From positions 24,220,647 through 24,284,646 of the forward strand of contig OY987298.1 in the NCBI GenBank assembly GCA_963920635.1: DNA of 64,000 bases, written 5' to 3'. Every line of letters begins with the position of its first letter. The first letter of the stretch is position 1. This document shows positions 5,361 to 32,037 of the stretch, in pieces. Origin of the DNA: Pseudeuparius sepicola. Taxonomy: Eukaryota > Arthropoda > Insecta > Coleoptera > Anthribidae. The position numbers and the translations under genes are program-made. The notes under the pieces are model-generated. The model ran no database searches, had not been told where the DNA came from, and saw nothing but the letters and a program-made list of their open reading frames with translations.

Positions 5361-5612
5361 TATAGTGTAAAACATTTATACAGGGTGTTGTGTGAATGAA
5401 AGCATGCAATAAAGAGTAACTTTTTTCAGATCGGGCTCCGTTTAGGAGATATTCAGTTATAAAAATACTTTATTATTTTATTCCACAATTTGTAATATCC
5501 CACTAAAGTAAATAATAAATTTCGACAAAGTTATTAACCACGTTAAAAACTACAGTAGATGTTTCAAAATGCCACCATTTACATTGGCAACGCAAAACAA
5601 TACAATTGTATA

Positions 5613-5857
5613 TGTTCAGTTCTTGATCAGTTATGTAATATTTTGATCTTTCCGCCGTCTGCCTGATGACTGGTCTTGTGGCGCCGCTTAGCGGTGGAAT
5701 TGTAACATAACATAAGTCACTTTTCGACACGGTAACGAAAGACGCAGTTGTATTGTAACAAATTGCTTCAAAAAATAAACGAATTATTATAAAAGTGTGC
5801 ACGCGAGTTTGAATTCGTAAACAAGCCTATGGTAATACTAGAACGTAAAAACATTCA
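5613..5857 (+). repeat. 5' LTR of BEL/Pao element
   Basis: This TGTTCAG...ACATTCA LTR is 245 bp, the same length as the 3' LTR and matching it throughout by eye. An AATAAA polyadenylation signal lies at 5774-5779. The transcription start was not located. Confidence 0.92.
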
Positions 5858-5858
5858 T

Positions 5859-5876
5859 TGGTCCTTCGAGCCGGAT
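5859..5876 (+). promoter_or_regulatory. Primer binding site, tRNA-Tyr type
   Basis: TGGTCCTTCGAGCCGGAT begins one base after the 5' LTR. Its complement is the 3' end of eukaryotic tRNA-Tyr, including CCA, so tRNA-Tyr is the likely reverse-transcription primer. Confidence 0.85.
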
Positions 5877-6002
5877 GACCAAATTCGCGTCGCGAAACGC
5901 TTAAAAAGAAAAAGTAACCTTCGGGTCGAAAGTGACGGGTCGCGATCGAGTTCGTAAAAACCCGAGCGACGTAAACGTCAACAAAAAAAATTCGTTAAAA
6001 AA

Positions 6003-6197
6003 ATCAACGACGCCAGCGAGAGCGTAACAAGGCAGTTCTACAGCGAGAACGTCTTGATTTCATCAAAGCAACGTGTCTCTGGACGACGCAGAGGCATATC
6101 AACGACGCCAACGAGAGCGCTACAAGAAGGCAGTTCTACAGCGAGAACGTCTTCATCGAATCACGTGTCCCTGGTCGACGCAGGGGCATATCATCGA
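6003..6197 (+). repeat. 95-bp tandem duplication in the BEL leader
   Basis: The words atcaacgacgcc, ggcagttctacagcgagaacg and gcatatca occur twice with a 95-bp offset (6003 and 6098). The copies differ by a few substitutions and small indels. They lie in the untranslated leader between the primer binding site and the gag ATG, where RNA packaging signals are expected. The 102-codon frame over them is not a credible gene. Confidence 0.7.
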
Positions 6198-6584
6198 AGC
6201 AGCGAGACTTCAAACAGGCGACAATCGGCATAGTACGAGGGCCGGCGGTATCGCAAGCATTCATTCCCGTTCACCAAGTGGAATTGGGACATCACAACAT
6301 AAAAGGGGGCTCCTGGACGGGACCAACGAGACGGCCGCAGGACATAACCTCAACAAAACCAAAACGAATCACGGACCATAGAGGTTACAACACAACCGAC
6401 TACCTAGAGGTGCGATACGAGTAAGTCTTTTTACCAAAAATTCCCCAAAACCTTATTCCCACGCTTCGAGTCAAACAAAAGAATAAAAATAGAACATTCA
6501 TTCGTATTTACGTAATAAAACATTCATTCATAAAATAACCTTTCAACAATTTTGAGTTTTTCTTTCAAATACCGAAAAAACAAG

Positions 6585-9500: not shown

Positions 9501-11870
9501 AAAACACTAGGTATCACTTGGGATTCAACAAAGGATGTATTCAAACATTTTATCCCACAAAATATAAACAAAGAAATTATTACCAAACGAACAATTCTAT
9601 CTGGCATAGCACAAATATACGACCCACTTGGCCTTATTAGTCCAATCATTGTCAACGCTAAAATTATTCTGCAACAACTGTGGCAACTCAGATGTGACTG
9701 GGATCAACAAGTACCGCCAAAAATCGAAAATTCTTGGCTAGACTTCCTAGAACACTTACCATACTTAAAATCAGTGGAAATCCCTCGTTGCGTAATCTCA
9801 TCTGACAATATCATTATATCGTTGCACGGCTATTGCGATGCATCTCAGTCTGCATACGGCGCATGTATATATGTGGTCGCGGCAAATCCTAATAATGGTA
9901 AAATTACGTCAAATCTACTTTGTTCTAAATCACGACTAGCGCCAATAAAACCAATTTCATTACCAAGATTAGAATTATGCGGAGCATATTTGCTAGCGGA
10001 ACTTATGCACAAGGTCAAGGGTATTCTACGAGTTCAGATAAGTGACACAACATACTGGACAGATTCTACTATCGTTTTAGCATGGTTAAACTCAGAGCCT
10101 AACAAATGGAAAATTTTCGTTTCAAATCGCGTAGCAGAAATACAACGACTTACCGAAAACGATAGGTGGAACCATATAGATACAGATGAAAACCCTGCCG
10201 ATATTCCTTCACGCGGAGCAAATGCCCAAGATTTACAAAACAATAAACTTTGGTGGCATGGACCAAGCTTCCTAGTAAAGGAAAAGCATGAGTGGCCTCA
10301 CAGTCAAACAGTCGAAATTCCAGACATTCCAGAAGCGCGAAAGGAAAACGTCTCAGTTTCATTTGTTTCAATACTAAATCAGAACGATATTTTTTCACGA
10401 TATTCCTCATTTTCAAAATTGATAAGAGTTATGACATATGCGTATCGTTTTATTTCGAAGAGTAAATCTAAGGGCAAGGGTTTAAGCAAACACCTTTCAC
10501 CCACAGAGCTAAACGACACAATTATTAAACTTACAAAAATCATCCAAGCAGAAACGTTTGCAAAGGAAATCAATTCGCTTGGTGACAACAAACCTGTTAC
10601 CAAAGACAGCAAATTATTGACGCTAAACCCATTTATTGACTCCGATGGTCTTATTCGGGTTGGAGGTCGCTTAAAAAATTCAAATTTGCCTTACGATCAT
10701 AAATATCCTATCGTCCTACCAGCCAAGCATTCATTCACACGATTATTGATTCGACATACACACCACAAGTACCTGCATGCAGGGCCTCAGTTCGTTCTTT
10801 CACAAATTCGTACTAAATTTTGGCCATTGAATGGTAGGAACGAAGTACGAAACGTATTAAGAAAATGCATTACGTGTTTTAGAGTAAAACCTACATCGGT
10901 TACACAACTTTTAGGTTCACTCCCTGAATATAGAATCACACATTCACGACCATTTACCTTTTGTGGCATAGATTATGCAGGACCGTACTTGATAAAAGAC
11001 GGATCTACACGAAGTCGAACATACTTAAAATGTTATCTTTGTATATTCATATGTTTGGTGACACACGCTGTGCATGTTGAGCTAGTGACTAGTCTAACAA
11101 CCGAAGCATTCTTAAACTCATTCAAGAGATTCGCAGCCAGACGAGGCTTACCTAAACATATTTATAGTGATAATGCCACCAACTTCGTTGGGGCTAACAA
11201 TGATTTGAAGCAAATTCATGAATTGGTCATAAATACTTCTACGGACGATCAGGTTAAATCATATTTAACGGAAAACAGAGTTGAATGGCACTTTATTCCC
11301 CCAAGATCACCCCACTTTGGAGGAATGTGGGAATCGGCAGTCAAATCTTTCAAATATTTTCTCAAACGTATCTTGAACGAGACAAAATTACATTTCGAAA
11401 CATTTTATACGATATTGACTCAAATCGAAGCTATCCTAAACTCACGCCCTATCCTTCCTCTATCCCAAGATCCTTCCGACTTACAAATACTGACACCAGG
11501 ACATTTCCTCATTGGAAGCAGTCTGACCGCTGTTCCACAAGAAGACGTACGACAAATACCAACCAACAGACTTAACCATTACAAACAGATGCAGCAGCTG
11601 GTCCAGCATTTCTGGAGAGCATGGAAAAGAGATTATCTTCATACGCTACAACAAAGAGCAAAATGGTTTAAATCCAGCGATAACATCAAAATCGGAGCAC
11701 TGGTATTGCTACACGAAGATAACGCCCCACCAATGCACTGGTCCCGAGGAAGAATCACAGAAGTGCACCCTGGCAGTGACAATTTGGTGCGCGTAGTGTC
11801 AGTGTTCACGAAGAAAGGTGTTGTAAAAAGAGCAATCAACAAAGTATACCCTTTGCCTACCGAAGAATAG
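6585..11870 (+). CDS. BEL/Pao Gag-Pol polyprotein
   Basis: One uninterrupted frame. The first ATG is at 6585 (aagATGaca, 1761 aa); the frame is open 33 bp further upstream, but only with a TTG. Order: Gag-like region (DUF1759 type) to about residue 330; three zinc knuckles from residue 339 (two C-x2-C-x4-H-x4-C, then a C-x2-C-x3-H-x4-H form); an aspartic protease with DSA instead of DTG at 493; reverse transcriptase with first Asp at about 831 and YMDD at 907; RNase H starting around the CDA motif near 1085; integrase with an HHCC finger, then D1463, D1529 and E1583; and a C-terminal DUF5641-type domain ending in YPLP. Together these copy the RNA into DNA and integrate it. No envelope ORF follows. 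All catalytic residues I checked are present. Confidence 0.96.
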   Translation: MTDENAAHPKGFTTRRGQLKAQLTRFSKFLENVTSENICELKMRLQKIEAIWDEFMDVQLSIEEIDNDDLQQARERESFENAYFQFSAKASELIARHETEKPSRTSILENSNTESQNQTSLNLIPQMSNLPPINLPKFSGQYDEWLQFFEIFKSIVHDNEKIGKVQKFYYLQSCLCGEASKVLSSLQVCESNYEIAISLLKERFENRRLTIHKHVKNIFDFPAIPKENHVAIRKLIDSFSINIRALNVLGEPTEYWDTLLIYLITTKLDVHTRRDWEINNKRDSPRYDDLIAFLKNKCQILETLDNKSFEKPFDKFNKNSSFNKTMVHVATNNDNTIYCTYCKQNSHYTFKCQKLLSLPIKDRFKQLKDLNICTNCLRAGHSVLNCIGRKCRLCGKRHNTILHDSNYRPGYQQSNQSNNQPINNNANMRASKPTSTITNNNAENAVVGNTSDTSKVTLTSQINPKENWQILLATAIICMQDENMSIECRALLDSASQSNFCTINLFECLQKDAREIEIPIQGISQMHCTISHSFITQIQSCDDSYKTNLQFLVIERITTQLPQNYVDISELCIPKHIKLADERFNIPQPIDVLLGAEIFFDLLRNGQIHLGNNQPILQETKLGWVVSGKIPALAQNTKTYQTSNCHITTNDIQNALERFWQTENIDLAQNKLSNEELECEMHFRENVKQDKDSGRYTVKLPVKNNYNELGESLTIAIERLYAVEKRLAKNPELKIQYDEFLTEYEKLGHMTKVKVNQSHDEHDKIHVYLPHHPVIKNSSTTTKVRVVFDASCKTSSGLSLNDVLKVGPKVQNDLFDIVIRMRTYKYIIVADVEKMFRMVDIHPNQRNLTRIVWRSNPNDEISHYTLNTVTYGTSSASFLATRVLHEIGLKCKHENPQISKIILNDFYMDDLITGANTLNKAKQIYSEINKILLDSGFKLRKWQSNNSKIFKDDITDSDCCFNEFHIGSTTETKTLGITWDSTKDVFKHFIPQNINKEIITKRTILSGIAQIYDPLGLISPIIVNAKIILQQLWQLRCDWDQQVPPKIENSWLDFLEHLPYLKSVEIPRCVISSDNIIISLHGYCDASQSAYGACIYVVAANPNNGKITSNLLCSKSRLAPIKPISLPRLELCGAYLLAELMHKVKGILRVQISDTTYWTDSTIVLAWLNSEPNKWKIFVSNRVAEIQRLTENDRWNHIDTDENPADIPSRGANAQDLQNNKLWWHGPSFLVKEKHEWPHSQTVEIPDIPEARKENVSVSFVSILNQNDIFSRYSSFSKLIRVMTYAYRFISKSKSKGKGLSKHLSPTELNDTIIKLTKIIQAETFAKEINSLGDNKPVTKDSKLLTLNPFIDSDGLIRVGGRLKNSNLPYDHKYPIVLPAKHSFTRLLIRHTHHKYLHAGPQFVLSQIRTKFWPLNGRNEVRNVLRKCITCFRVKPTSVTQLLGSLPEYRITHSRPFTFCGIDYAGPYLIKDGSTRSRTYLKCYLCIFICLVTHAVHVELVTSLTTEAFLNSFKRFAARRGLPKHIYSDNATNFVGANNDLKQIHELVINTSTDDQVKSYLTENRVEWHFIPPRSPHFGGMWESAVKSFKYFLKRILNETKLHFETFYTILTQIEAILNSRPILPLSQDPSDLQILTPGHFLIGSSLTAVPQEDVRQIPTNRLNHYKQMQQLVQHFWRAWKRDYLHTLQQRAKWFKSSDNIKIGALVLLHEDNAPPMHWSRGRITEVHPGSDNLVRVVSVFTKKGVVKRAINKVYPLPTEE

Positions 11871-11940
11871 TTATAAGATTTCTTTATTGTAATCAAACTA
11901 ACCTATCACATATCTTTTCGTTGAAATAACCACTTATTTC

Positions 11941-11953
11941 AAGGCCGGCGGCA
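11941..11953 (+). promoter_or_regulatory. Putative polypurine-tract region before the 3' LTR
   Basis: The purine-leaning stretch aaggccggcggca directly abuts the TGTTCAG start of the 3' LTR, where the plus-strand primer must lie. It is not a pure purine tract, so the exact primer is uncertain. Confidence 0.5.
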
Positions 11954-12198
11954 TGTTCAGTTCTTGATCAGTTATGTAATATTTTGATCTTTCCGCCGTC
12001 TGCCTGATGACTGGTCTTGTGGCGCCGCTTAGCGGTGGAATTGTAACATAACATAAGTCACTTTTCGACACGGTAACGAAAGACGCAGTTGTATTGTAAC
12101 AAATTGCTTCAAAAAATAAACGAATTATTATAAAAGTGTGCACGCGAGTTTGAATTCGTAAACAAGCCTATGGTAATACTAGAACGTAAAAACATTCA
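11954..12198 (+). repeat. 3' LTR of BEL/Pao element
   Basis: The same 245-bp TGTTCAG...ACATTCA sequence as the 5' copy, with AATAAA at 12115-12120. It is followed at once by the gtata target duplication. Confidence 0.92.
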
Positions 12199-16761: not shown

Positions 16762-17457
16762 GGGGAGAGACGGGTAATATCGGACACATATCGAAAAATT
16801 GAAATATTTTTTATCAAAAAAATTGATATATTAACATATATTTGCTTGAAATAAACTATACACTTTGCAGAATAGAATACATAATCAAATTAAACAAAAA
16901 AACTTAAACAAAAACTCCACTCGTTAAAAACAAAAGTGGGCCTCTTTTTGTAATTTTCTGAAAACGTCGGGTAGTACCGGACACGAATTAATTCCCCTTA
17001 CAAATGCCGCATTTATAATAAACCTGATGTTTTTCTGCCCCAGAACAATTTTTATGGGTCCAACCATGGCACTAGATGCATTGTATCTAATTTGCTACCA
17101 AGTCTTCACCACAGATGATACACTCCGTTGCTTCTTGTTGCCGTTCAGAGCACATTATCTTTGCTATATTTTTTGTCCTTTACATTTTTATTTTTTTCAA
17201 TGTAATCCTCTAGTTGCTCAATTTTTCTTTTTTCCTTTTGTGTGCTTGGGCATTTTTTTATAGTTAATACGAAAATAAGAATGTTCAGTTAAAATTTCAG
17301 TGTGTCCGATATCACCCGAAATAGGTACGTGTGTCCGATATTACCCGAACAGCACCGTTGGAAAAAAGTGGCCAACTTATTTTTTACGACCCTCCGATAA
17401 TTTCCATAAAACCATTTTTATATTCCAAAATAACCAACAAATGTTATATAATATGAA

Positions 17458-17720
17458 AGTAGTAATACAAAGAGAGTACGGGACCACTTTGACCTCAGTT
17501 GACCCCTTGATTCTGAGAGTCCCCTACGGCCCGAGGTCACGGGAGCAAAGTGGCTACGTCATGCCCGAGGTCACGTGACGTCACCGGATGACCCCAGTTG
17601 ACCCCTAGATCCTGATAGGTTAACCTTTGACCTTTGGGCCACGTGTGACCCCCAGTTGACCCCCCCCCCCCCACTCCAACGACGGGGCAACCCCCACTCC
17701 AACGGCTTGGTGGGGTGAGG
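17458..17720 (+). repeat. Distal terminal block of the left arm (GTTGACCCC-rich)
   Basis: The outermost about 260 bp is GC-rich against an AT-rich interior. It has three loosely spaced cagttgacccc units and an E-box/CRE-like palindromic run, tcacgtgacgtcac. It ends in an oligo-C tract (17660-17672). The mirror block is at about 30555-30816. Repeated words next to the tips could be integrase or terminal-protein binding sites; that is inference. Confidence 0.65.
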
Positions 17721-17799
17721 TCTATATATTCGTGCGCAAGAGCAGTTTTCCCGTTATATACACTTACAATTTCCCACAGTCTGATTTGCCGAGTTCAAA
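17721..17799 (+). promoter_or_regulatory. TATA-type promoter upstream of the 115-aa ORF
   Basis: tctatatatt at 17721-17730 is followed about 70 bp later by the ORF start; a second TATA-like gttatata is at 17754. The mirror arm keeps a matching region (tatatagacc near 30546-30555) although the ORF behind it has been lost. The transcription start is not determined. Confidence 0.5.
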
Positions 17800-18147
17800 A
17801 TGCAGTCGTTCCTGAATCACCTGAACAAGAATTTGATCGTCAAGAAATTCGAAAGCGTTCAAAATATGGACGTGGATGAAAATTTTCAAATCACGAGCGT
17901 GGACAAAGTGAACACGCAATACGGAGAGAAGGTCTACGTAGAGTTCGAAGAATTTAAGACGGTGCTGCCGCAACGATACACGGCCGAGTTTACGCCCCAA
18001 GGGATCGAAGAAATTAATAGGGATATCGGTAACGGAAGGAGGTATTACATGAAGAGTCTTGGACCCGTCGGCCGATCTACAAATATCGAATTTATTGTAG
18101 AACCATGGCGAAGCTGGAGTACAGAAGAAAACTGCAACAATATTTGA
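17800..18147 (+). CDS. Unknown 115-aa protein of the palindromic element
   Basis: ATG in context aaaATGc; 115 codons. I do not recognise it with certainty. The sequence is charged at the start (MQSFLNHLNKNLIVKKFES), then alternates hydrophobic and polar residues in a strand-like pattern around ITSVDKVNTQYGEKVYVEFE and VLPQRY, suggesting a small beta-rich (possibly OB-like) fold. A nucleic-acid-binding role is only a guess. It lies just inside one terminus, behind a TATA box, and overlaps a second ORF. An AATAAA follows 86 bp after its stop. The codons look less AT-biased than the surrounding repeats, consistent with a real gene. The mirror arm has lost it. Confidence 0.6.
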   Translation: MQSFLNHLNKNLIVKKFESVQNMDVDENFQITSVDKVNTQYGEKVYVEFEEFKTVLPQRYTAEFTPQGIEEINRDIGNGRRYYMKSLGPVGRSTNIEFIVEPWRSWSTEENCNNI

Positions 18148-18227
18148 AGAATTTAGAAGCATTGAAATATGAACTTATGTTATATGAAATTAAAATGAAG
18201 ATAAAACATATTGACTTACACAATTAA
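18105..18227 (+). CDS. Overlapping 40-aa helical ORF
   Basis: It starts within the 3' end of the 115-aa ORF in another frame, with an optimal context, accATGG. It reads MAKLEYRRKLQQYLKNLEAL and ends at TAA 18225-18227. Lysine, glutamate and leucine spacing (L4, L9, L14, L17, L20) fits an amphipathic helix or short coiled coil. It could be reached by leaky scanning or reinitiation, or it could be the original C-terminus of the upstream protein after a frameshift. I cannot tell which. Confidence 0.45.
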   Translation: MAKLEYRRKLQQYLKNLEALKYELMLYEIKMKIKHIDLHN

Positions 18228-18232
18228 TTTTT

Positions 18233-18238
18233 AATAAA
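18233..18238 (+). terminator. AATAAA polyadenylation signal
   Basis: AATAAA lies six bases after the stop of the 40-aa ORF and is followed by a GT/T-rich stretch (ttttgttgtgttttttt). It plausibly ends the two-ORF transcript. Confidence 0.55.
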
Positions 18239-18370
18239 CGTTTAAAAATCTTTTGTTGTGTTTTTTTTATAAGAATCTTTGTGTTGAAGGGAAAACACCT
18301 GAAGCATCATATTATAATAAAACTCTCACTCTAAGCAATAATATCACTCTATTCCACTGTTATGTGTATA

Positions 18371-18540
18371 CAGGGTGATTCTTAACTTATACACATAAAT
18401 TTGGAAAATTGTAGGTTATGTCAAGTAATGGCTAATAATGAAAAAAAAAGTCTAATAAAATTGTTATCGATAAGGTCTGCGTTTGTGATCTTATGAACCA
18501 TAATTTTTAATTTATTTGTGCAAATAAACCCCGAATTGTT
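18371..18540. mobile_element. One-ended CAGGGTG MITE fragment
   Basis: TA-CAGGGTG at 18369-18377 opens an AT-rich stretch with no matching inverted end nearby. It sits in the segment unique to the left arm. Confidence 0.4.
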
Positions 18541-18745
18541 CAAGTACACAAAATTATAACTCAGCTGTTGCGTCGCATCGGGTTACTCGCTGCGAACGCG
18601 TGACCGCATAGTAAATATATAGTAAGAGAAAACACGTGGAATAGTTCACGACAGACGCCTGCTTTGTTTGGTCGAGCACTCAGCGATTTTGCTGAAACCG
18701 CATATAGAACAATAGGCTACAAATTTCACCCAATTAATTATCTTC

Positions 18746-18811
18746 TAGCAACTACGTGCCAGGAGGAACGGAGGCCGAAGGCCTCCGTCCGACTGGCATG
18801 TAGTTGCCCGA
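18746..18811. repeat. Hairpin at the boundary of the left-only segment
   Basis: gcaactacgtgccag and ggaggcc are mirrored by ggcctcc and ctggcatgtagttgc around a gaa centre. Only the distal half exists in the right arm. The left-only 986 bp ends inside this hairpin. Confidence 0.7.
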
Positions 18812-19879
18812 ACAAAATCCACCCTTCCCCCTTGCACGCGTTTCGCGCATGCGCAGTTCCGCACTTTTGAAAATTTTTTATTCAAAAAATGTAATTTTAA
18901 AAAGGTCCTGATCCTATAATCCCGATAACATTTTGGGAAATTTTCATTTTTTGACGGTGAAATGTACAAGACAAGACTCAGACGAATGTTTTATATACAA
19001 GTGCAGATAGAATTTTTTCGAGTGACTGATAAAAACAGCTATTATAATAGTTAATCGGAAGGCCCCAGATAACATAGGAAATTTTGTTTGAACAAGATCT
19101 GTAAAAAAATCCAAGACGTGAAAATGTAGGTAGAATTTTCGAATAAGTTTTGTATACCGGTAAAAATATATGTAAAGGTAAAAATAACGTCAGTTTCACT
19201 TGGAAAGAAATGATGAAAAAATTTCAGTTTCAGTAAAAAAAATACGATGTAGAGGTTGTACCAAAAAAAATTGGAAATAATTATTTATTCCAGTAAAATA
19301 TACACAAGACCGAAAAAGGTAATTGCGCGGCTGTCCCATTTTATACACCCTAGCTGTTTCAGTTCATCTCGTTTGGAAAAATTTTAGGGGTTATTACTTT
19401 TTTAAATACCGGTTTCCTCAACCTTATTTGAAAGTAAATATTTTTTAGTTCCCCACAGAAGGAAATAATGACGATATTTTATACCGGTGGATTCAAAAAA
19501 TATATAAGGTTAGGAAAAAACCTTGGTAGGCAAACGCGGCTCTGCTGACCAGACAAAAAAAAACCTTAGTCGACAAATAATGGCCTATAAGAAGGGTGCG
19601 TGATTCCACGTATCAGTTCGAGTGCTCCAAGATGCAAGTAAGTATATACCAGCTGTCCCATTTTTAAACAGCTAGATATTTGGAAACCTTTCGTAAAAAA
19701 ATTCCCAAGGATTACATGAGCAAAAGAAAGAAAAAAATTTAAATATACCAGCTGTCCCATTTATAAACCGCTTGATATCTTGGAAACGAAAACTTATATA
19801 AAGGAAGTAAAAGCCATATCTTAATAGGCGGAGGACCGACTGTCATTCAGACAGGTGAAAAATTTTTGTGATTTTTTGT

Positions 19880-20375
19880 AGAAGTTTTTTGACAAAATTT
19901 TTTTTGTCATTTTTTTTTGCCAAAATTTTTTTTTGGCAGAATTTTTTTTTTGCCAAAATTTTTTTTTGCCAAAATTTTTTTTTGCCAAAATTTTTTTTTA
20001 CCAAAATTTTTTTTTACCAAAATTTTTTTTTGCAAAATTTTTTTTTGCCAAATTTTTTTTTGCAAAATTTTTTTCCCTAAATTTTTTTTTCGTCTAAATT
20101 TTTTTCCCCAAATTTTTTTTTCGTCAAAATTTTTTTTTGTCAAATTTTTTTTTTACAATTTTTTTTGGCAAAATTTTTTTTTGCAAAATTTTTTTTTGCC
20201 ACATTTTTTTTTGCCAAATTTTTTTTTGCCAAATTTTTTTTTGTCAAAATATTTTTTGTCAAAATTTTTTTTTGTAAAATTTTTTTTGACATTTTTTTTT
20301 GCCAAATTTTTTTTTGTCGAATTTTTTTTTGCCAAATTCTTTTTCGACAAATTTTTTTTTGATACAAATATAATT
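19880..20375. repeat. T-tract array (ttttttttgccaaaat), left arm
   Basis: About 30 imperfect 15-17 bp units consist of a run of T, then gcc or gtc, then aaa. The mirror array at about 29105-29395 is roughly 200 bp shorter. Its translations (FFFAKIFF and KKILAKKN strings) are artefacts of the repeat. Confidence 0.85.
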
Positions 20376-21247
20376 GCTAACGTTTAATTTGTTTACCCCA
20401 TTTACGAAAATGATAACAAAATTGGATCAGACAAGATGTTTTTTCGAAGTATAGTTTTTAAACACAGGGTGCCACCACCGGTTTTACGATATAGGTTTCA
20501 AAATGCGACGCAAGTACATAAAAAAATACCCTAGAGATAAGAAAACAAAATACAACTCACCGAAAGATTCTTGATGATGTATAAAAAGAAATCAGGTTAC
20601 ATCTAATGCCCCAGACAGTAAAATAAACATCCCCGAGCTATCAGATATAACCAAACATCATTTTTCTAACGGCACAGTCATTTTCACGGGAAAAACAACC
20701 AGTAACCGTTCAAATTCCATAGATAAGTACTGCCGTAATCCAAAATTTCACTGAACTACGCGTATCTATTATACTGAAGTAGGTACTGATACACTTCCAT
20801 CTTTCCAAAGAAAAACAAACACGAAACTCAGACTTTTCATATATTTATTACAACGCCTCGATAGAGTCTTTATCTGTGGCCACGACCGAAAATCTACTGA
20901 AGCAAGTGCGACGCATAGGACGTGAAAAGTGCCGAGTTGGTTTTATTAAACAATGAAACTTATACCTACGTATATATAAAATAAATGAGAAATATGCCAG
21001 AGATGTGAAACCTAATTGTGTTGCAAGTTTGAGGGTCCAAAAAAAATATTGGCTTTAATTTTTTAAGGTGAGAAACACATCTAACAGCCAGTTTGGAAAT
21101 ATACAAGGCAAAAAAAGTAGTGATGTGGCTGTCCCATTTTATGTTTTATACAGGTTGGGTTATTTTAGAATAGTTGTTCAATAGACCGAGACAACATCAT
21201 AAACGCTTCCCGTTAGAACAGAATCTGATGAAAAGAAAAATTCCATC

Positions 21248-21490
21248 TGGGTCAAGCTACTACATAACTAAAATAAAAAATACTGAACGTTATAAAATTT
21301 AAAAAATCATATTTTCAACGGATTTTTATCATCTGAAAATTGTTCTTGTGTAAAATTCAGTTTCACTGGGTCAAGCTAGGTGGTAACTATATAACCAAAA
21401 TAAAAAATACTGAACGTTATAAAATTAAAAAAATCATATTTTCAAGGGATTTTTGTCCTCTGAAAATTGGTTTTGTGTAAATTGAGTTTC
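21248..21490. repeat. About 120-bp direct duplication, left arm
   Basis: The segment gggtcaagct...ctgaacgttataaaa...tcatattttcaa...gtgtaaa occurs twice, starting near 21250 and 21369. Both copies are mirrored in the right arm around 27980-28220. Confidence 0.75.
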
Positions 21491-21968
21491 AATAAGTTAC
21501 TAATTGAGATAATAGGAAAAAAATCTTAAAAATCTCTTATAGAATTCTGAGACAACGACCCTGAGAGTAAATATCATACAAAAATCTTTGTGCGTTGACT
21601 TTCAACTCAATTTAATAATTAGGTTTAATAATGACAATTTTCTCGATTATCTAGAATCAAAAATATTGCGAGTGGCAATTCACAATTTTCTAGATATCAT
21701 GTGAAGCCTTATTATTGCGTCGTAAGTTAGAGGATCCAAAAATATTGGCTTAAATTGTTTAGTAAATGCGATTAAAATATGTTTAGTTTATCAACAGTTA
21801 ATTGTAACAGCTTATAATCTTAGAAGCTAAACTCTTTAAAAAAATTTTTAGACAAAAAGTTGTAGTTTAATAATGGTCAGTTGGATTCCTTTTGAATCAT
21901 GTTTGCATATTACCTACAAGGAGTTACAACCTCAAAACATAGAAATCGCTCATTTTAAACCGATTTAA

Positions 21969-22330
21969 TAAAAATTTCACCAAAACAATACTTTCACTCA
22001 TATGATACACTTCTGATTAATAAAAAAGGCACCATAGGTAGTAATAATAAGATATTCAACGGAATTTTTATCGACTGTTTGCCCATTTTGCTAGCTTTTG
22101 GGGGTATTCCTTGATATTTTAGACTGATAAAAATGAATAATAAAAATTAAAAATAAAAATTTCACCAAAACAATACTTTCACTCATATAATACACTTCTG
22201 ATTAATAAAAAAGGCACCATAGGTAGTAGTAATAAGATATTCAACGGAATTTTTATCGACTGTTTGCCCATTTTGCTAGCTTTGGGGGGTATTCCTTGAT
22301 ATTTTAGACGGATAAAAATGAATAACTAAA
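21969..22330. repeat. About 183-bp direct duplication, left arm
   Basis: Two nearly identical copies carry aaaatttcaccaaaacaata and ggcaccataggtagta, starting near 21969 and 22152. They are mirrored in the right arm at about 27140-27500. Confidence 0.8.
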
Positions 22331-22699
22331 ATTCAAAACGCACTGTTGACTTTACTTACGTGAATAGTAAGTCTATAATACGTATCGAAAACAGAGAAAT
22401 ATTCAGGTCAAGAAAAAAATGGCCTAATTTACAAGTTTGTAAATCAAAAACTACCTTTTGGCTTTTCATTTTGATGAGAAAATACGTCTAATTAGTAAGT
22501 CAAATAAATGGGACATCATGAAAGATATACTAATAATTGAACAAATGCTATCTTAGTTCTATAGGCAGAAAGGTACTATGGGTAGTAATAGTTTTGGGAT
22601 CAAAAGACGACCTGTTAGCTTTTAAATTTGTTAAGAAAATACGTCTAATGAAATTGAAAGTAGTAACTAGGTTTTGGTTAACATTTCGTTAACGCGTTG

Positions 22700-24015
22700 A
22701 TGAATAAGAATGCAAGTGAAAAGTAGACCGAATTTCCCAAAAAACGGTGAGTGACCAAACAAGTTATTATAAAAAGTGGCTCGGGAGACCGATGTAACCT
22801 AGGAAACGCCTTTCCTTCGAATAGAAAGTAAAAAAAAGTTGCAAAATGGGACTTAGATGAATATTTGATGCAAGTGAAAAGTAGGCAGAATTTTCGAAAA
22901 TCGGGGACGGATCAAAAAATATTAAGTTGATCGGGAGGTTGAGATAACCTATGAAACACCTTTCATTCCCACAGAATCTGACAAAAAATTCCAAGAAAAT
23001 TTTAGACGACTGTTTGCAAGTGAAAAGTATACATAATTTTTTTGAAAAAACTGCGACTGACCAAAAAAAATAGATATTAGAAAATTTTGCTCGGGAGATC
23101 GAGGTAACATAGAAAACGCCTTTCATCCGAATATAATCTGAAATAAATTCCGAGATGGGACTTAGATGAATGTTTGATGCAAGTGGAAAGTAGACCGAAT
23201 TGCCGAAAAACGCGGGAGGTCGAGGTAACCTCGGAAAAACGCCTTTTATTCGAACAGAATCTGACAAAAAAAAATCCAAGTCGAATGTTTGATGCAATTG
23301 AAAGGTAGACAGAATTTTAGAAAAACGGCAACTGATCAAAAAATATATATTCGAAAATTTTGGTCGGGAGCCCGAGGTAACCTAGAAAACGCCTTTCGTT
23401 CTAACAGAATCCGACAAAAAAATTCCAAGACGGGATGGTAGTGGGACGAATGTTTGACGCAAGTTAAAAGTAGACAGAATATTAAAAAACGAGAACCGAC
23501 CAAGTAGTTATTAGAAAAAGTGGCTCAGGAGGTCGAGGTAACCTAGGAAATGCCTTTAGTTTGAAAAGAATCTGACAAACAAAAAATCCAAGACGAATAT
23601 TTGATGCAATTGAAAGGTAGACAGAATTTTAGAAAAACGGCAACTGATCAAAAAATATATATTCGAAAATTTTGGTCGGGAGCCCGAGGTAACCTAGAAA
23701 ACGCCTTTCGTTCGAACAGAATCCGACAAAAAAATTCCAAGACGGGATGGTAGTTGGACGAGTGTTTGACGCAAGTTAAAAGTAGACAGAATATTAAAAA
23801 ACGAGAACCGACCAAATAGTTATTAGAAGAAGTGGCTCGGGAGGTCGAGGTAACCTAGGAAATGCCTTTCATTCGAACAGAATCCGACAAAAAAAAATTC
23901 CAAGACATGACTTAGAAAAATATTCATTTGATGCAGATGAAAAAGAGACAGCATTTCCAAAAAAAACTTCGACTGACCTAAAAGTTATTAGAAAAAGTTG
24001 CTCGGGAGGCCGATG
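22700..24015. repeat. Tandem array of about nine 150-170 bp units, left arm
   Basis: Each unit contains gcaagtgaaaagtagacaga, then cgggaggtcgaggtaaccta, then ggaaacgcctttc and cagaatctgacaaaaa. Starts are spaced about 125-175 bp apart. Diverged single units also occur outside the array (near 19070 and 21180). The mirror array is at about 25445-26755. The long frames across it (190 aa) are repeat translations. Confidence 0.85.
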
Positions 24016-24145
24016 TCTAGCAAAATATAACACCATTGCACCAGAGTTATTTCCATCTACGTAACATTATTGGCGTGGTGGTCGACTAATCGCGTTCACT
24101 ATTAAATTAATTATGACTGGTCAAATACGTATATAATGCAAATTA

Positions 24146-24540
24146 AAAAACGCTTTAACGAAGCGTTTACAATGCGTTAACGAGGATTGACAGCGCGTTA
24201 ACGAGGCGTTACCAACGCGTTAAACGCGTGAAAGAAGCGTTATCAACGTGTTAAACGCGTGAAAGAAGCGTTATCCATGCGTTACGCGTTAACGAAGCGT
24301 TATCAACGCGTTAACAACGCGTTATCCATGCGTTAACTACTAGTTATCGATTCGTTAACAATGCGTTAACGAACAACGCATTAACGAACAACGCGTTAAC
24401 GAAACGTTAACGACGTGTCAGCAAAGCTTTAACAAAGCGTTAACGAAGCTTTAACATCGCGTCAATGCGTTAAGACGCGTTAAAACCGCGTTAACGAATC
24501 TTTGACGACGCATTAACGAAGCGTTGACGAGTGTGGAAGT
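24146..24540. repeat. GCGTTAAC minisatellite near the palindrome centre, left
   Basis: Dozens of gcgttaac/acgcgtt words at irregular 10-20 bp spacing. gttaac and acgcgt are themselves palindromic. The mirror array at about 24925-25325 gives two CpG-bearing arrays flanking the loop. Confidence 0.85.
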
Positions 24541-24712
24541 GCGTGGACCCTCCAACTCCCAGAATCGCAACTTACACCAGATCAAACTCAACTGTGGAAT
24601 CTTGTGACGTCACAGAGATGCTACTTTACATTTCTTTTAAGTAGTTAACCTAACCTAACATTATTGTCGCGGTGACCAAGAGGTTATCGACTGGTGAACC
24701 GATTGCCATTGG

Positions 24713-24754
24713 ATTTGGGAGAGGTGTATCAAAGGCGGATTAAGTCAGTTTTGA
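24713..24754. other. 42-nt loop at the centre of the palindrome
   Basis: The arms meet at ccattgg (ends 24712) and ccaatgg (starts 24755). The 42 bases between, beginning atttgggagaggtgtatc, have no inverted partner and mark the symmetry axis at about 24733. Confidence 0.85.
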
Positions 24755-27700
24755 CCAATGGTAATCGGTTCACCAGTCGATAACCTCTTGGTCACCGCGA
24801 CAATAATGTTAGGTTAGGTTAACTACTTAAAAGAAATGTAAAGTAGCATCTCTGTGACGTCACAAGATTCCACAGTTGAGTTTGATCTGGTGTAAGTTGC
24901 GATTCTGGGAGTTGGAGGGTCCACGCACTTCCACACTCGTCAACGCTTCGTTAATGCGTCGTCAAAGATTCGTTAACGCGGTTTTAACGCGTCTTAACGC
25001 ATTGACGCGATGTTAAAGCTTCGTTAACGCTTTGTTAAAGCTTTGCTGACACGTCGTTAACGTTTCGTTAACGCGTTGTTCGTTAATGCGTTGTTCGTTA
25101 ACGCATTGTTAACGAATCGATAACTAGTAGTTAACGCATGGATAACGCGTTGTTAACGCGTTGATAACGCTTCGTTAACGCGTAACGCATGGATAACGCT
25201 TCTTTCACGCGTTTAACACGTTGATAACGCTTCTTTCACGCGTTTAACGCGTTGGTAACGCCTCGTTAACGCGCTGTCAATCCTCGTTAACGCATTGTAA
25301 ACGCTTCGTTAAAGCGTTTTTTAATTTGCATTATATACGTATTTGACCAGTCATAATTAATTTAATAGTGAACGCGATTAGTCGACCACCACGCCAATAA
25401 TGTTACGTAGATGGAAATAACTCTGGTGCAATGGTGTTATATTTTGCTAGACATCGGCCTCCCGAGCAACTTTTTCTAATAACTTTTAGGTCAGTCGAAG
25501 TTTTTTTTGGAAATGCTGTCTCTTTTTCATCTGCATCAAATGAATATTTTTCAAAGTCATGTCTTGGAATTTTTTTTTGTCGGATTCTGTTCGAACGAAA
25601 GGCATTTCCTAGGTTACCTCGACCTCCCGAGCCACTTCTTCTAATAACTATTTGGTCGGTTCTCGTTTTTTAATATTCTGTCTACTTTTAACTTGCGTCA
25701 AACATTCGTCCCACTACCATCCCGTCTTGGAATTTTTTTGTCGGATTCTGTTAGAACGAAAGGCGTTTTCTAGGTTACCTCGGGCTCCCGACCAAAATTT
25801 TCGAATATATATTTTTTTGATCAGTTGCCGTTTTTCTAAAATTCTGTCTACCTTTCAATTGCATCAAATATTCGTCTTGGATTTTTTGTTTGTCAGATTC
25901 TTTTCAAACTAAAGGCATTTCCTAGGTTACCTCGACCTCCTGAGCCACTTTTTCTAATAACTACTTGGTCGGTTCTCGTTTTTTAATATTCTGTCTACTT
26001 TTAACTTGCGTCAAACATTCGTCCCACTACCATCCCGTCTTGGAATTTTTTTGTCGGATTCTGTTAGAACGAAAGGCGTTTTCTAGGTTACCTCGGGCTC
26101 CCGACCAAAATTTTCGAATATATATTTTTTGATCAGTTGCCGTTTTTCTAAAATTCTGTCTACCTTTCAATTGCATCAAACATTCGACTTGGATTTTTTT
26201 TTGTCAGATTCTGTTCGAATAAAAGGCGTTTTTCCGAGGTTACCTCGACCTCCCGCGTTTTTCGGCAATTCGGTCTACTTTCCACTTGCATCAAACATTC
26301 ATCTAAGTCCCATCTCGGAATTTATTTCAGATTATATTCGGATGAAAGGCGTTTTCTATGTTACCTCGATCTCCCGAGCAAAATTTTCTAATATCTATTT
26401 TTTTTGGTCAGTCGCAGTTTTTTCAAAAAAATTATGTATACTTTTCACTTGCAAACAGTCGTCTAAAATTTTCTTGGAATTTTTTGTCAGATTCTGTGGG
26501 AATGAAAGGTGTTTCATAGGTTATCTCAACCTCCCGATCAACTTAATATTTTTTGATCCGTCCCCGATTTTCGAAAATTCTGCCTACTTTTCACTTGCAT
26601 CAAATATTCATCTAAGTCCCATTTTGCAACTTTTTTTTACTTTCTATTCGAAGGAAAGGCGTTTCCTAGGTTACATCGGTCTCCCGAGCCACTTTTTATA
26701 ATAACTTGTTTGGTCACTCACCGTTTTTTGGGAAATTCGGTCTACTTTTCACTTGCATTCTTATTCATCAACGCGTTAACGAAATGTTAACCAAAACCTA
26801 GTTACTACTTTCAATTTCATTAGACGTATTTTCTTAACAAATTTAAAAGCTAACAGGTCGTCTTTTGATCCCAAAACTATTACTACCCATAGTACCTTTC
26901 TGCCTATAGAACTAAGATAGCATTTGTTCAATTATTAGTATATCTTTCATGATGTCCCATTTATTTGACTTACTAATTAGACGTATTTTCTCATCAAAAT
27001 GAAAAGCCAAAAGGTAGTTTTTGATTTACAAACTTGTAAATTAGGCCATTTTTTTCTTGACCTGAATATTTCTCTGTTTTCGATACGTATTATAGACTTA
27101 CTATTCACGTAAGTAAAGTCAACAGTGCGTTTTGAATTTTAGTTATTCATTTTTATCCGTCTAAAATATCAAGGAATACCCCCCAAAGCTAGCAAAATGG
27201 GCAAACAGTCGATAAAAATTCCGTTGAATATCTTATTACTACTACCTATGGTGCCTTTTTTATTAATCAGAAGTGTATTATATGAGTGAAAGTATTGTTT
27301 TGGTGAAATTTTTATTTTTAATTTTTATTATTCATTTTTATCAGTCTAAAATATCAAGGAATACCCCCAAAAGCTAGCAAAATGGGCAAACAGTCGATAA
27401 AAATTCCGTTGAATATCTTATTATTACTACCTATGGTGCCTTTTTTATTAATCAGAAGTGTATCATATGAGTGAAAGTATTGTTTTGGTGAAATTTTTAT
27501 TAAATCGGTTTAAAATGAGCGATTTCTATGTTTTGAGGTTGTAACTCCTTGTAGGTAATATGCAAACATGATTCAAAAGGAATCCAACTGACCATTATTA
27601 AACTACAACTTTTTGTCTAAAAATTTTTTTAAAGAGTTTAGCTTCTAAGATTATAAGCTGTTACAATTAACTGTTGATAAACTAAACATATTTTAATCGC

Positions 27701-30700
27701 ATTTACTAAACAATTTAAGCCAATATTTTTGGATCCTCTAACTTACGACGCAATAATAAGGCTTCACATGATATCTAGAAAATTGTGAATTGCCACTCGC
27801 AATATTTTTGATTCTAGATAATCGAGAAAATTGTCATTATTAAACCTAATTATTAAATCGAGTTGAAAGTCAACGCACAAAGATTTTTGTATGATATTTA
27901 CTCTCAGGGTCGTTGTCTCAGAATTCTATAAGAGATTCTTAAGATTTTTTCCCTATTATCTCAATTAGTAACTTATTGAAACTCAATTTACACAAAACCA
28001 ATTTTCAGAGGACAAAAATCCCTTGAAAATATGATTTTTTAAATTTTATAACGTTCAGTATTTTTTATTTTGGTTATATAGTTACCACCTAGCTTGACCC
28101 AGTGAAACTGAATTTTACACAAGAACAATTTTCAGAGGATAAAAATCCGTTGAAAATATGATTTTTTAAATTTTATAACGTTCAGTATTTTTTATTTTAG
28201 TTATGTAGTAGCTTGACCCAGATGGAATTTTTCTTTTCATCAGATTCTGTTCTAACGGGAAGCGTTTATGATGTTGTCTCGGTCTATTGAACAACTATTC
28301 TAAAATAACCCAACCTGTATAAAACATAAAATGGGACAGCCACATCACTACTTTTTTTGCCTTGTATATTTCCAAACTGGCTGTTAGATGTGTTTCTCAC
28401 CTAAAAAAATTAAAGCCAATATTTTTTTTGGACCCTCAAACTTGCAACACAATTAGGTTTCACATCTCTGGCATATTTCTCATTTATTTTATATATACGT
28501 AGGTATAAGTTTCATTGTTTAATAAAACCAACTCGGCACTTTTCACGTCCTATGCGTCGCACTTGCTTCAGTAGATTCTCGGTCGTGGCCACAGATAAAG
28601 ACTCTATCGAGGCGTTGTAATAAATATATGAAAAGTCTGAGTTTCGTGTTTGTTTTTCTTTGGAAAGATGGAAGTGTATCAGTACCTACTTCAGTATAAT
28701 AGATACGCGTAGTTCAGTGAAATTTTGGATTACGGCAGTACCTATCTATGGAATTTGAACGGTTACTGGTTGTTTTTCCCGTGAAAATGACTGTGCCGTT
28801 AGAAAAATTATGTTTGGTTATATCTGATAGCTCGGGGATGTTTATTTTACTGTCTGGGGCATTAGATGTAACCTGATTTCTTTTTATACATCATCAAGAA
28901 TCTTTCGGTGAGTTGTATTTTGTTTTCTTATCTCTAGGGTATTTTTTTATGTACTTGCGTCGCATTTTGAAACCTATATCGTAAAACCGGTGGTGGCACC
29001 CTGTGTTTAAAAACTATACTTCGAAAAAATATCTTGTCTGATCCAATTTTGTTATCATTTTCGTAAATGGGGTAAACAAATTAAACGTTAGCAATTATAT
29101 TTGTATCAAAAAAAATTGTCGAAAAAGAATTTGGCAAAAAAAAATTCGACAAAAAAAAATTTGGCAAAAAAAAATTTCAAAAAAAATTTTACAAAAAAAA
29201 ATTTTGACAAAAAATATTTTGACAAAAAAAAATTTGGCAAAAAAAAATTTGGCAAAAAAAAATTTTGCCAAAAAAAATTGTAAAAAAAAAATTTGACAAA
29301 AAAAAAATTTGCCAAAAAAAAAATTCTGCCAAAAAAAAATTTTGGCAAAAAAAAAATGACAAAAAAAATTTTGTCAAAAAACTTCTACAAAAAATCACAA
29401 AAATTTTTCACCTGTCTGAATGACAGTCGGTCCTCCGCCTATTAAGATATGGCTTTTACTTTATATAAGTTTTCGTTTCCAAGATATCAAGCGGTTTATA
29501 AATGGGACAGCTGGTATATTTACATTTTTTTCTTTCTTTTTCTCATGTAATCCTTGGGAATTTTTTTACGAAAGGTTTCCAAATATCTAGCTGTTTAAAA
29601 ATGGGACAGCTGGTATATACTTACTTGCATCTTGGAGCACTCGAACTGATACGTGGAATCACGCACCCTTCTTATAGGCCATTATTTGTCGACTAAGGTT
29701 TTTTTTGTCTGGTCAGCAGAGCCGCGTTTGCCTACCAAGGTTTTTTCCTAACCTTATATATTTTTTGAATCCACCGGTATAAAATATCGTCATTATTTCC
29801 TTCTGTGGGGAACTAAAAAATATTTACTTTCAAATAAGGTTGAGGAAACCGGTATTTAAAAAAGTAATAACCCCTAAAATTTTTCCAAACGAGATGAACT
29901 GAAACAGCTAGGGTGTATAAAATGGGACAGCCGCGCAATTACCTTTTTCGGTCTTGTGTATATTTTACTGGAATAAATAATTATTTCCAATTTTTTTTGG
30001 TACAACCTCTACATCGTATTTTTTTTACTGAAACTGAAATTTTTTCATCATTTCTTTCCAAGTGAAACTGACGTTATTTTTACCTTTACATATATTTTTA
30101 CCGGTATACAAAACTTATTCGAAAATTCTACCTACATTTTCACGTCTTGGATTTTTTTACAGATCTTGTTCAAACAAAATTTCCTATGTTATCTGGGGCC
30201 TTCCGATTAACTATTATAATAACTGTTTTTATCAGTCACTCGAAAAAATTCTATCTGCACTTGTATATAAAACATTCGTCTGAGTCTTGTCTTGTACATT
30301 TCACCGTCAAAAAATGAAAATTTCCCAAAATGTTATCAGGATTATAGGATCAGGATATTTTTAAAATTACATTTTTTGAATAAAAAATTTTCAAAAGTGC
30401 GGAACTGCGCATGCGCGAAACGCGTGCAAGGGGGAAGGGTGGATTTTGTTCGGGCAACTACACGCCAGTCGGACGGAGGCCTTCGGCAAATTAGACTGTA
30501 TAAAACTGCAAGTGTATATAAGGGGAAACTGCTCTTGCGCTCGGATATATAGACCTCTCCCCACCAAGCCGTTGGAGTGGGGGTTGCCCCGTCGTTGGAG
30601 TGGGGGCTGGGGGGTCAACTGGGGGTCACACGTGGCCAAAAGGGCAAAGGTCAACCTATCAGGATCTAGGGGTCAACTGGGGTCATCCGGTGACGTCACG

Positions 30701-30816
30701 TGACCTCGGGCATGACGTAGCCACTTTGCTCCCGTGACCTCGGGCCGTAGGGGACTCTCAGGATCAAGGGGTCAACTGAGGTCAAAGTGGTCCCGTACTC
30801 TCTTTGTATTACTACT
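24755..30816. repeat. Right arm of the giant palindrome
   Basis: This is the mirror of 17458-24712 and carries the same tandem arrays in reverse order. It lacks the counterpart of 17793-18778, and its T-tract array is shorter. At the loss point the sequence passes directly from the mirror of atttgccga to the mirror of aggcctcc. gccga occurs at both edges of the missing piece in the left arm (17788 and 18774), so a 5-bp microhomology deletion is the simplest explanation. Confidence 0.85.
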
Positions 30817-31675: not shown

Positions 31676-32037
31676 CTACAAACCTGAGAAATCACCATTA
31701 TTTACCTCATTCCTCTAATGAGAAGTAATATTTCTCTACCTAGGTAAATAATGATAATAAAAAAATACCTAGGTAAATAATGAAAAATTTTCTATGCGAC
31801 ATTTAAAAATTAGTGTCATTTTATCAGCTTGACAACTGAACTCCCAGGCTACTTGATATTTTGAAGTATTTGAAAAAAAGCGAGAAATGACTAAAATATG
31901 GCACTATTTCAATGTTAGTAGTAAAAAAAATTCTATATACACTTCGGTTGAGAAGGCCATTATTTACCGAGCATATTTATATCCTGAGGCGCGTAGCTGG
32001 CTCACTTCTCAACCTAGGTGTATAATATACTATTAAT
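31676..32037. repeat. Dispersed repeat, copy 1
   Basis: It shares long words with 56338-56664: acctaggtaaataatgataa, cagcttgacaactgaactcc, cttcggttgagaaggccatt and ctcacttctcaacct. The short inverted words at 31942 (cacttcggttgagaag) and 32009 (cacttctcaacctaggtg) suggest a small foldback core. Confidence 0.65.

What the first reader, a model, noticed from the sequence alone, without database searches (positions are those of the whole stretch)
17458..30816. Giant palindrome with Polinton-type ends and no Polinton genes
The element is almost entirely two inverted arms (about 7.3 and 6.1 kb) around a 42-nt loop. It has AG...CT tips and a perfect 6-bp target duplication (tatgaa). Known Polintons carry long unique coding cores between short terminal repeats; here the terminal repeat is effectively the whole element. 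It resembles an inverted dimer of one end, as snap-back or defective replicons form in protein-primed DNA replication. If mobile, it would be a non-autonomous 'hairpin Polinton' class that I do not recognise as described.
Basis: partly seen in the sequence, partly recalled or inferred. Interest (0 to 1): 0.92.

Follow-up and report, generated by a model that had tools for sequence, protein, structure and literature searches.

The report
Giant palindromic Polinton family, widely copied
A virus-like jumping element in this animal genome has lost its large genes and become two mirror-image halves, and in that mirror form it has copied itself to many places, which suggests it folds back on itself when it replicates.

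Summary
Window 17458-30816 is a 13,359-bp element with TATGAA target duplications, (AGT)2...(ACT)2 tips and two inverted arms (7,255 and 6,062 bp) around a 42-nt loop. It is not a one-off: the 769-Mb genome has 541 exact copies of the 15-bp tip and 252 of the loop with up to 3 mismatches. Of 66 adjacent tip pairs tested, 59 have identical 6-bp duplications. Copies with the same tips carry Polinton genes: rve integrase, double-jelly-roll capsid, A32-like ATPase, and a polymerase-B ORF known by motifs only. So this is a non-autonomous Polinton/Maverick whose inverted repeat is nearly the whole element. Of the first ten consecutive tip pairs on contig 1, four are near-total palindromes, one is a palindrome lacking most of one arm, two have 4-5.5-kb arms around a core, three bear genes. 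Variants shared between copies sit in both arms in 21 of 35 carriers (permutation mean 2.5, maximum 8), so arms are re-copied from each other while the family spreads, but not beside the loop. Two tips appear to have gained one AGT unit. Best explanation: fold-back synthesis on a protein-primed linear intermediate, mobilised in trans.

The parts
17452..17457 (.). left 6-bp target site duplication TATGAA
17458..30816 (.). whole palindromic non-autonomous Polinton, 13,359 bp
17458..17792 (+). left tip/TIR with (AGT)2 end and a TATA-like stretch (promoter reading is inference)
17793..18778 (+). 986-bp stretch present only in the left arm; GCCGA at the joint
17800..18147 (+). small ORF P0001 (115 aa here). 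In the other copies read it stops at codon 103, or 102 at the non-polymerase ends L127 and L134; L118/119 carry a 12-base insert and L131 is frame-shifted
   Evidence: no hit, only weak hits; low-confidence model
17458..24712 (+). left arm (7,255 bp)
19885..20361 (.). 15-bp tandem array, left arm (longer than in right arm)
24150..24530 (.). AACGCGTT-type short-unit array, left arm
24713..24754 (.). 42-nt asymmetric loop at the axis; same loop in the 30 axis loci read (at most 1 substitution each) and at 252 genome places (up to 3 mismatches)
24755..30816 (-). right arm (6,062 bp), inverted
24937..25317 (.). mirror copy of the AACGCGTT array
29108..29381 (.). mirror copy of the 15-bp array, shorter
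30483..30816 (-). right tip/TIR with (ACT)2 end; 4.9% from the left tip, 1.2% from the non-polymerase-end tip of gene-bearing copy L124
30817..30822 (.). right 6-bp target site duplication TATGAA

Best explanation
This is a non-autonomous Polinton/Maverick in which one element end (the polymerase-side end with its subterminal ORF and 15-bp array, plus further non-coding DNA) has been doubled head-to-head into a giant palindrome. SHOWN: it is mobile as a palindrome (many copies with the same axis and 6-bp duplications at different sites). SHOWN: copies with the same tips carry Polinton genes. SHOWN for the inner 1.44 kb of 23 copies: the two arms of a copy are homogenised on the timescale of its spread. 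INFERRED: an intermediate copied out by the relatives' protein-primed polymerase has a 3' end just past the loop, folds back on itself and uses its own arm as template, so that both arms and both tips are regenerated from one. The relatives' integrase then inserts the linear product with a 6-bp duplication. INFERRED: the founding palindrome arose the same way, at a spot able to fold on itself.
For: 541 exact tips, 0 in control. The first 100 listed tips form 47 adjacent +/- pairs of 8.4-23.3 kb, 6 tips unpaired. 59 of 66 listed pairs have identical 6-bp TSDs against 69 of 21,726 random pairings (295 of 541 tips were listed). Of 59 loop places tested (46 exact, 13 of the listed one-mismatch ones), 13 have both tips listed: 11 with equal TSDs, the other 2 fitting one extra AGT unit on one tip. 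Loop at 252 places. Same-tip gene-bearing copy: rve 7.1e-12, DJR capsid 1.6e-69, Pox_A32 8.8e-13; polymerase-B motifs by eye in L125. Shared variants: 21 carriers in both arms, 14 in one; permutation mean 2.5 both-arm, max 8 of 2,000 (23 copies). The 4 shared variants with no both-arm carrier lie 8, 79, 164 and 963 nt from the loop, the 11 others at 409-1432 nt (one-sided exact p 0.028, chosen after seeing the data). The mismatch 8 nt from the loop stays on one side in 22 of 23 copies. (AGT)2//(ACT)2 ends and 6-bp TSDs are published Maverick features (PMC8097293, section 7 and passages seen).
Against: The fold-back step is not seen directly. Arm-to-arm gene conversion in the chromosome could also homogenise arms and spare the stretch beside the loop. 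14 of 35 carriers of shared variants have them in one arm only, and 71 of 99 private variants are in one arm (post-insertion mutation is the likely reason). In the outer 330 bp, arms of one copy are often not nearest neighbours; ours are 4.9% apart. 3 of 66 tip pairs have TSDs that disagree without explanation and 2 differ at one base. Pfam did not recognise the polymerase ORF as a DNA polymerase at E<=0.1, nor did NCBIfam or PDB sequences. No non-palindromic parent of the inner arm was found. A place with the loop variant shows no arm sequence on the left at 4 kb.
Confidence: 0.6

Rival explanations
1. The palindrome is a fixed two-arm transposon that moves by ordinary copying; the arms are kept alike only by chromosomal gene conversion, as proposed for long-TIR elements such as Galileo (TIR expansion).
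For: The Galileo discussion proposes TIR expansion and exchange and says inverted-repeat expansion has been reported for Polintons. Copy L128/129 with 5.5-kb arms and a 5.1-kb core looks like a step of TIR expansion. A tandem-array block is shared between one arm each of two copies, L143 and L146. 14 of 35 carriers of shared variants have one arm only.
Against: Variants shared between copies are mostly in both arms (21 of 35 carriers), so homogenisation keeps pace with spread; the two tip-slippage cases are in palindromic copies and point to end-primed copying.
Confidence: 0.3
2. One founding rearrangement (break-and-fold-back or fusion of two elements in the chromosome) made the palindrome; it then spread passively and no fold-back occurs in its life cycle.
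For: The same 42-nt loop is in the 30 axis loci read, and 22 of 23 copies keep one single-sided mismatch beside it.
Against: A second axis with a different inner sequence (118-nt loop, L130/L131; L118/L119 look like its one-sided deletion) exists in the same family; arms co-vary during the spread.
Confidence: 0.25
3. Assembly artefact (false inverted duplication from fold-back reads).
For: Artificial palindromes in long reads are known after whole-genome amplification (PMC6218980, start of abstract seen).
Against: Matching TSDs next to different flanking sequence, arms with private differences, same loop at many sites. No reads were available to me.
Confidence: 0.02
4. The axis is a separate short palindromic repeat that landed in a Polinton and seeded the inversion.
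For: The loop occurs with a one-base variant at places without exact tips. L180 and L181 are palindromic over all 1,041 bp fetched but match our copy closely only in the inner ~342 bp. At C1:5.75 Mb nothing like our arm was found on the left at 4 kb or on either side at 6, 8 and 10 kb.
Against: At that same place arm sequence is present on the right at 2 and 4 kb (91% and 97%) and on the left at 2 kb (94%, with material missing), so it looks like an older, partly deleted member of the palindrome family. Only this one place was sampled.
Confidence: 0.12

Closest known systems
Polinton/Maverick (Polintoviruses), vertebrate Mavericks of PMC8097293
   Same: (AGT)2//(ACT)2 ends, 6-bp TSD, similar size (published 12.7-24.6 kb); same-tip copies with integrase, capsid, ATPase, polymerase-B ORF
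   Different: Published intact vertebrate elements have TIRs of 46-1,447 bp, mean 402; here the inverted repeat is nearly the whole element and the large genes are gone
Galileo / Foldback-like elements (Drosophila), two-TIR ('2T') copies (PMC3573991; passages and part 1 of the discussion seen)
   Same: Long, internally tandem-repetitive inverted repeats; non-autonomous two-TIR copies; structural variation and chimeric copies
   Different: P-superfamily transposase there, Galileo TIRs 18-1,250 bp; here Polinton tips and genes, 6-bp TSD, arms of 6-7 kb
Palindromic (inverted-dimer) deletion forms of protein-primed linear replicons such as yeast pGKL plasmids, and snap-back defective adenovirus genomes
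   Same: Would work alike: protein-capped linear DNA doubled head-to-head from one end
   Different: Recalled, not found in the listings; those are extrachromosomal or laboratory forms, not a transposon family in a genome
MITEs
   Same: Non-autonomous, mostly inverted repeat, many similar copies
   Different: MITEs are usually under 600 bp (as said in PMC3573991); this is 13-15 kb

Membership tests
Non-autonomous member of a Polinton/Maverick family | 6-bp target site duplication | tested here: met
   TATGAA in window; 59 of 66 listed pairs of the family identical
Non-autonomous member of a Polinton/Maverick family | AG... ends, commonly (AGT)2//(ACT)2 | tested here: met
   motif as published in PMC8097293 section 7
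Non-autonomous member of a Polinton/Maverick family | Shares terminal sequence with gene-bearing Polintons of the same genome | tested here: met
   Right tip 1.2% from that of L124; L126 shares the outer ~2.9 kb of the arm
Autonomous Polinton/Maverick | Retroviral-type (rve) integrase | tested here: not met
   Absent from this copy (left arm); present in same-tip copy L134, E 7.1e-12
[quoted passage not shown]
   Absent from this copy. In same-tip copies a long ORF (1,243 aa in L125, in two frames in L126, running off the fetched edge in L135) shows polymerase-B motifs by eye in L125 (recalled) without a Pfam polymerase hit at E<=0.1
Autonomous Polinton/Maverick | Double-jelly-roll capsid and A32-like packaging ATPase | tested here: not met
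   Absent from this copy; present in same-tip copy L134, E 1.6e-69 and 8.8e-13
Polinton/Maverick | Protein-primed replication of a linear intermediate | not testable with these tools
   Indirect only: apparent one-unit AGT gains at two tips
Foldback/Galileo | Long, internally repetitive inverted repeats | tested here: met
Foldback/Galileo | P-superfamily transposase partner | tested here: not met
   The same-tip copy scanned carries rve integrase and capsid genes instead
MITE | Short length (under about 600 bp) | tested here: not met
   13,359 bp

The most novel reading that the evidence does not exclude
A self-perpetuating 'hairpin Polinton': a protein-primed replicon reduced to one end plus a fold-back loop. 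It needs only one replicating end, regenerates its second arm and tip by snap-back synthesis in every round, and so spreads through an animal genome by hundreds of copies at the expense of gene-bearing Polintons.
Probability: 0.35. Interest if true: 0.87.

Novelty: new variant of a known kind. Interest (0 to 1): 0.74.

Why it matters
Polintons are thought to replicate by protein priming, but I know of no direct observation (recalled). A family in which a 13-15-kb palindrome spreads while its arms stay matched offers a natural record of how the DNA is copied: where strands fold back, how arms are re-copied, and how tips may slip by a trinucleotide. It also shows that long palindromes, usually thought unstable (recalled), can be amplified in an animal genome, and that a Polinton can be parasitised by its own end. 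The searched library holds no paper with the phrases nonautonomous or non-autonomous Polinton or Maverick, Polinton-derived nonautonomous, or defective Polinton; most subscription papers are missing from that library.

Tried and rejected
Assembly artefact: rejected by recurrence with TSDs at many sites. Coding function of the arms: no Polinton domain found; the hits HC2 (in the 15-bp array), UPA, Baculo_PEP_C and DUF3613 are all below curated cut-offs. Small ORF P0001: nothing in the protein search, PHROGs or NCBIfam; one PDB chain at E 4.1 and two Pfam hits below cut-off; structure model too poor to use, mean pLDDT 48. Separate short palindrome as axis seed: weakened, not excluded, by sampling one place. 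Viral contigs: the 15-mer occurs in 109 stretches, which I did not examine. Rfam: nothing. The TSD census lacks the classes TS, AW and TW (246 of 541 tips), never answered. A count of capsid-bearing copies (PF21738) was asked for and never answered. Dropped before counts: 5 of 30 axis loci for gaps or mismatches, then L143 and L146 for one tandem-array block. My notebook holds early slips, corrected here: right TSD one base too far, the left-only stretch as 982 bp instead of 986, the L124 tip called integrase-end.
Full report
OBSERVATION. The window holds a 13,359-bp element at 17458-30816, bounded by TATGAA on both sides. Its two ends start AGTAGTAATACAAAG on opposite strands. BLAST of the region against the window, minus strand, gives one 9.3-kb match at 98.7%, plus outer pieces at 94.9-96.5%; the axis is 24733.5. 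The loop is 24713-24754, 42 nt, not itself palindromic. Outward from the loop the stem has one mismatch at 8 nt and the next at 799 nt. The left arm has 986 bp (17793-18778) that the right arm lacks, with GCCGA at the joint. The 15-bp array differs in length between arms.

GENOME CENSUS. The genome holding the window has 769 Mb in 16 contigs. The 15-bp tip occurs 270 + 271 times exactly, 0 in the reversed control. The first 100 listed tips (contig 1, to 79.3 Mb) form 47 adjacent outward pairs of 8.4-23.3 kb, median 15.7 kb, with 6 tips unpaired. For three classes of flanking base (99 + 99 + 97 = 295 of 541 tips) I read the 6 bp outside each tip. Of 66 adjacent pairs, 59 have identical hexamers; by chance 69 of 21,726 random pairings agree. 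Of the 7 exceptions, 2 fit exactly if one tip has gained one AGT unit, 2 differ at one base, and 3 are unexplained (one of these has reverse-complementary hexamers). The remaining classes did not complete.

KINDS OF COPIES. I fetched nine of the first ten consecutive pairs on contig 1 (the tenth is the window's own) and one more chosen by size. Of the ten, four are near-total palindromes: the window, L118/119, L122/123, and L130/131, which also has about 4.4 kb of extra DNA near its right tip. L136 is a palindrome with most of one arm missing. L128/129 and L132/133 have 4-5.5-kb arms around a core. L124/125, L126/127 and L134/135 have short inverted repeats and genes. The extra one, L120/121, is of the core type. 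L122 looks like a central deletion of our axis with a 2-base AA overlap. L130 has another axis, with a 118-nt loop and different inner sequence, and L118 looks like a one-sided deletion of that type (my reading of the joints). The core of L128/129 has a GNAT acetyltransferase-like ORF (E 3.5e-7).

THE AXIS IS COPIED. A 351-bp piece across the axis matches 40 places full length at 97-100%, each also on the other strand at 87-91% (80 matches; only 40 of 315 candidates were scored). The 30 axis loci read have the same 42-nt loop with at most one substitution each. The loop pattern has 252 places with up to 3 mismatches and 0 in the control; 100 are listed, 46 of them exact. In the part of contig 1 where tips are fully listed, 11 of 20 listed loop places (0 or 1 mismatch) lie inside tip pairs; of the 9 others, 7 carry one common one-base variant. 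The one variant place sampled along its length has arm sequence on the right at 2 and 4 kb (91%, 97%) and on the left at 2 kb (94%), but none on the left at 4 kb, nor on either side at 6, 8 and 10 kb, so it looks like an older, shorter member; L180 and L181 match our copy closely only in the inner ~342 bp. Of 59 loop places tested against the listed tips, 13 have both tips listed, 26 one and 20 none; of the 13, 11 have identical TSDs and the other 2 are the two AGT-gain cases. Four copies with our loop were sampled 3 kb in from each tip: both samples match the arm in opposite orientation in all four, and in three of the four the samples overlap and match each other at 98.9-99.9%.

GENE-BEARING PARTNERS. 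L134 carries an rve integrase (7.1e-12), a double-jelly-roll capsid (1.6e-69), an A32-like ATPase (8.8e-13), a phospholipase-A2-like ORF (5.3e-14) and a weak, below-cut-off adenovirus-protease-like ORF (0.046). The largest ORF of the family, read from L125 (1,243 aa), shows polymerase-B motifs by eye (recalled) and an endonuclease-VII-like stretch, but no Pfam polymerase hit; in L126 it lies in two frames. The small ORF of our left arm lies near both tips in L126/127 and L134/135 and near one in L124/125. The polymerase-side end of L126 shares the outer ~2.9 kb of our arm, with an insertion. So our arm starts as a Polinton end; its inner part has no known source.

ARMS ARE RE-COPIED. With loop orientation as compass I compared the inner 1.44 kb of both arms. 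Of 30 loci, 25 aligned cleanly, and 2 more were left out for one tandem-array block. In the 23 left, 15 variants occur in two or more copies. Setting aside the one 8 nt from the loop, the 14 others give 21 carriers with the variant in both arms and 14 with it in one. Dealing the carrier arms out at random gives a mean of 2.5 both-arm carriers and at most 8 in 2,000 trials. Variants private to one copy are 28 in both arms, 42 in one and 29 in the other (the single-arm ones are about 0.1% per site). The 4 shared variants with no both-arm carrier are all on the same arm, at 8, 79, 164 and 963 nt from the loop; the 11 others lie at 409-1432 nt (one-sided exact p 0.028; few variants, test chosen after seeing them). 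So the arms are homogenised on the timescale of the spread, less so next to the loop. A 3' end lying a short way past the loop, folding back and copying the other arm outward, gives this pattern; chromosomal gene conversion could too. In the outer 330 bp the pattern is weaker: in several copies another copy's tip is as close or closer than the partner tip.

TIPS. (AGT)2//(ACT)2 is the commonest end motif of vertebrate Mavericks, with 6-bp TSDs, sizes 12.7-24.6 kb and TIRs 46-1,447 bp (PMC8097293; section 7 and passages seen). That paper's reference list includes the adenovirus jumping-back work. Apparent gains of one AGT unit at two tips are what slippage in such priming would leave. Tips with AGT just outside are 8 of 295 against 3.6 expected, a weak excess, and one of the 8 is a plain TSD.

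OUR COPY. Its right tip (about 330 bp) is 4.9% from its left tip but 1.2% from the non-polymerase-end tip of L124. With the 986-bp difference and GCCGA overlap, this suggests that the right end was exchanged during copying or repair.

LITERATURE. Galileo (PMC3573991; passages and part 1 of the discussion seen) is the nearest structural parallel: long repetitive TIRs, two-TIR copies, and a statement that inverted-repeat expansion has been reported for Polintons. The listings of ten paper searches show no title or abstract start describing palindromic Polintons. Palindromic forms of yeast killer plasmids and snap-back adenovirus genomes are recalled, not found.

VERDICT. It is a new variant of a known kind: Polintons turned into propagating giant palindromes. 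The fold-back life cycle is my best explanation (0.6) but is inferred.

Noticed in passing
window 5612-12198: Recent BEL/Pao LTR retrotransposon: identical 246-bp repeats at 5612-5857 and 11953-12198, open polyprotein of 1,765 aa with Pao peptidase (E 2.7e-51), and probably a GTATA duplication.
   Followed up: partly
L128:5861-6406 and relatives L120/121, L132/133: Long-arm copies share a core; in L128/129 it has a GNAT acetyltransferase-like ORF and other small ORFs, with no match to the gene-bearing copies.
   Followed up: partly
G000 C1:5751350 and other places with the ATCAGAGG loop variant: 41 of the 100 listed loop places carry one common one-base variant; those checked on contig 1 lie outside exact-tip pairs, and the one sampled looks like an older, partly deleted member of the palindrome family.
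   Followed up: partly
G000 C11:35329927 and C11:35343815: A tip pair whose flanking hexamers are reverse complements (TACAAA / TTTGTA); the flanks show no longer match to each other.
   Followed up: partly
L130/L131 near the right tip: A palindromic copy with about 4.4 kb of extra DNA some 250 bp inside the right tip, probably a later insertion.
   Followed up: no
window 31716-31899 and 56359-56533: Dispersed ~180-bp repeat, 90% identical, outside the element.
   Followed up: no
G000 tips: The insertion hexamers show a symmetric preference, A at position 2 and T at position 5, in the 295 listed tips.
   Followed up: no
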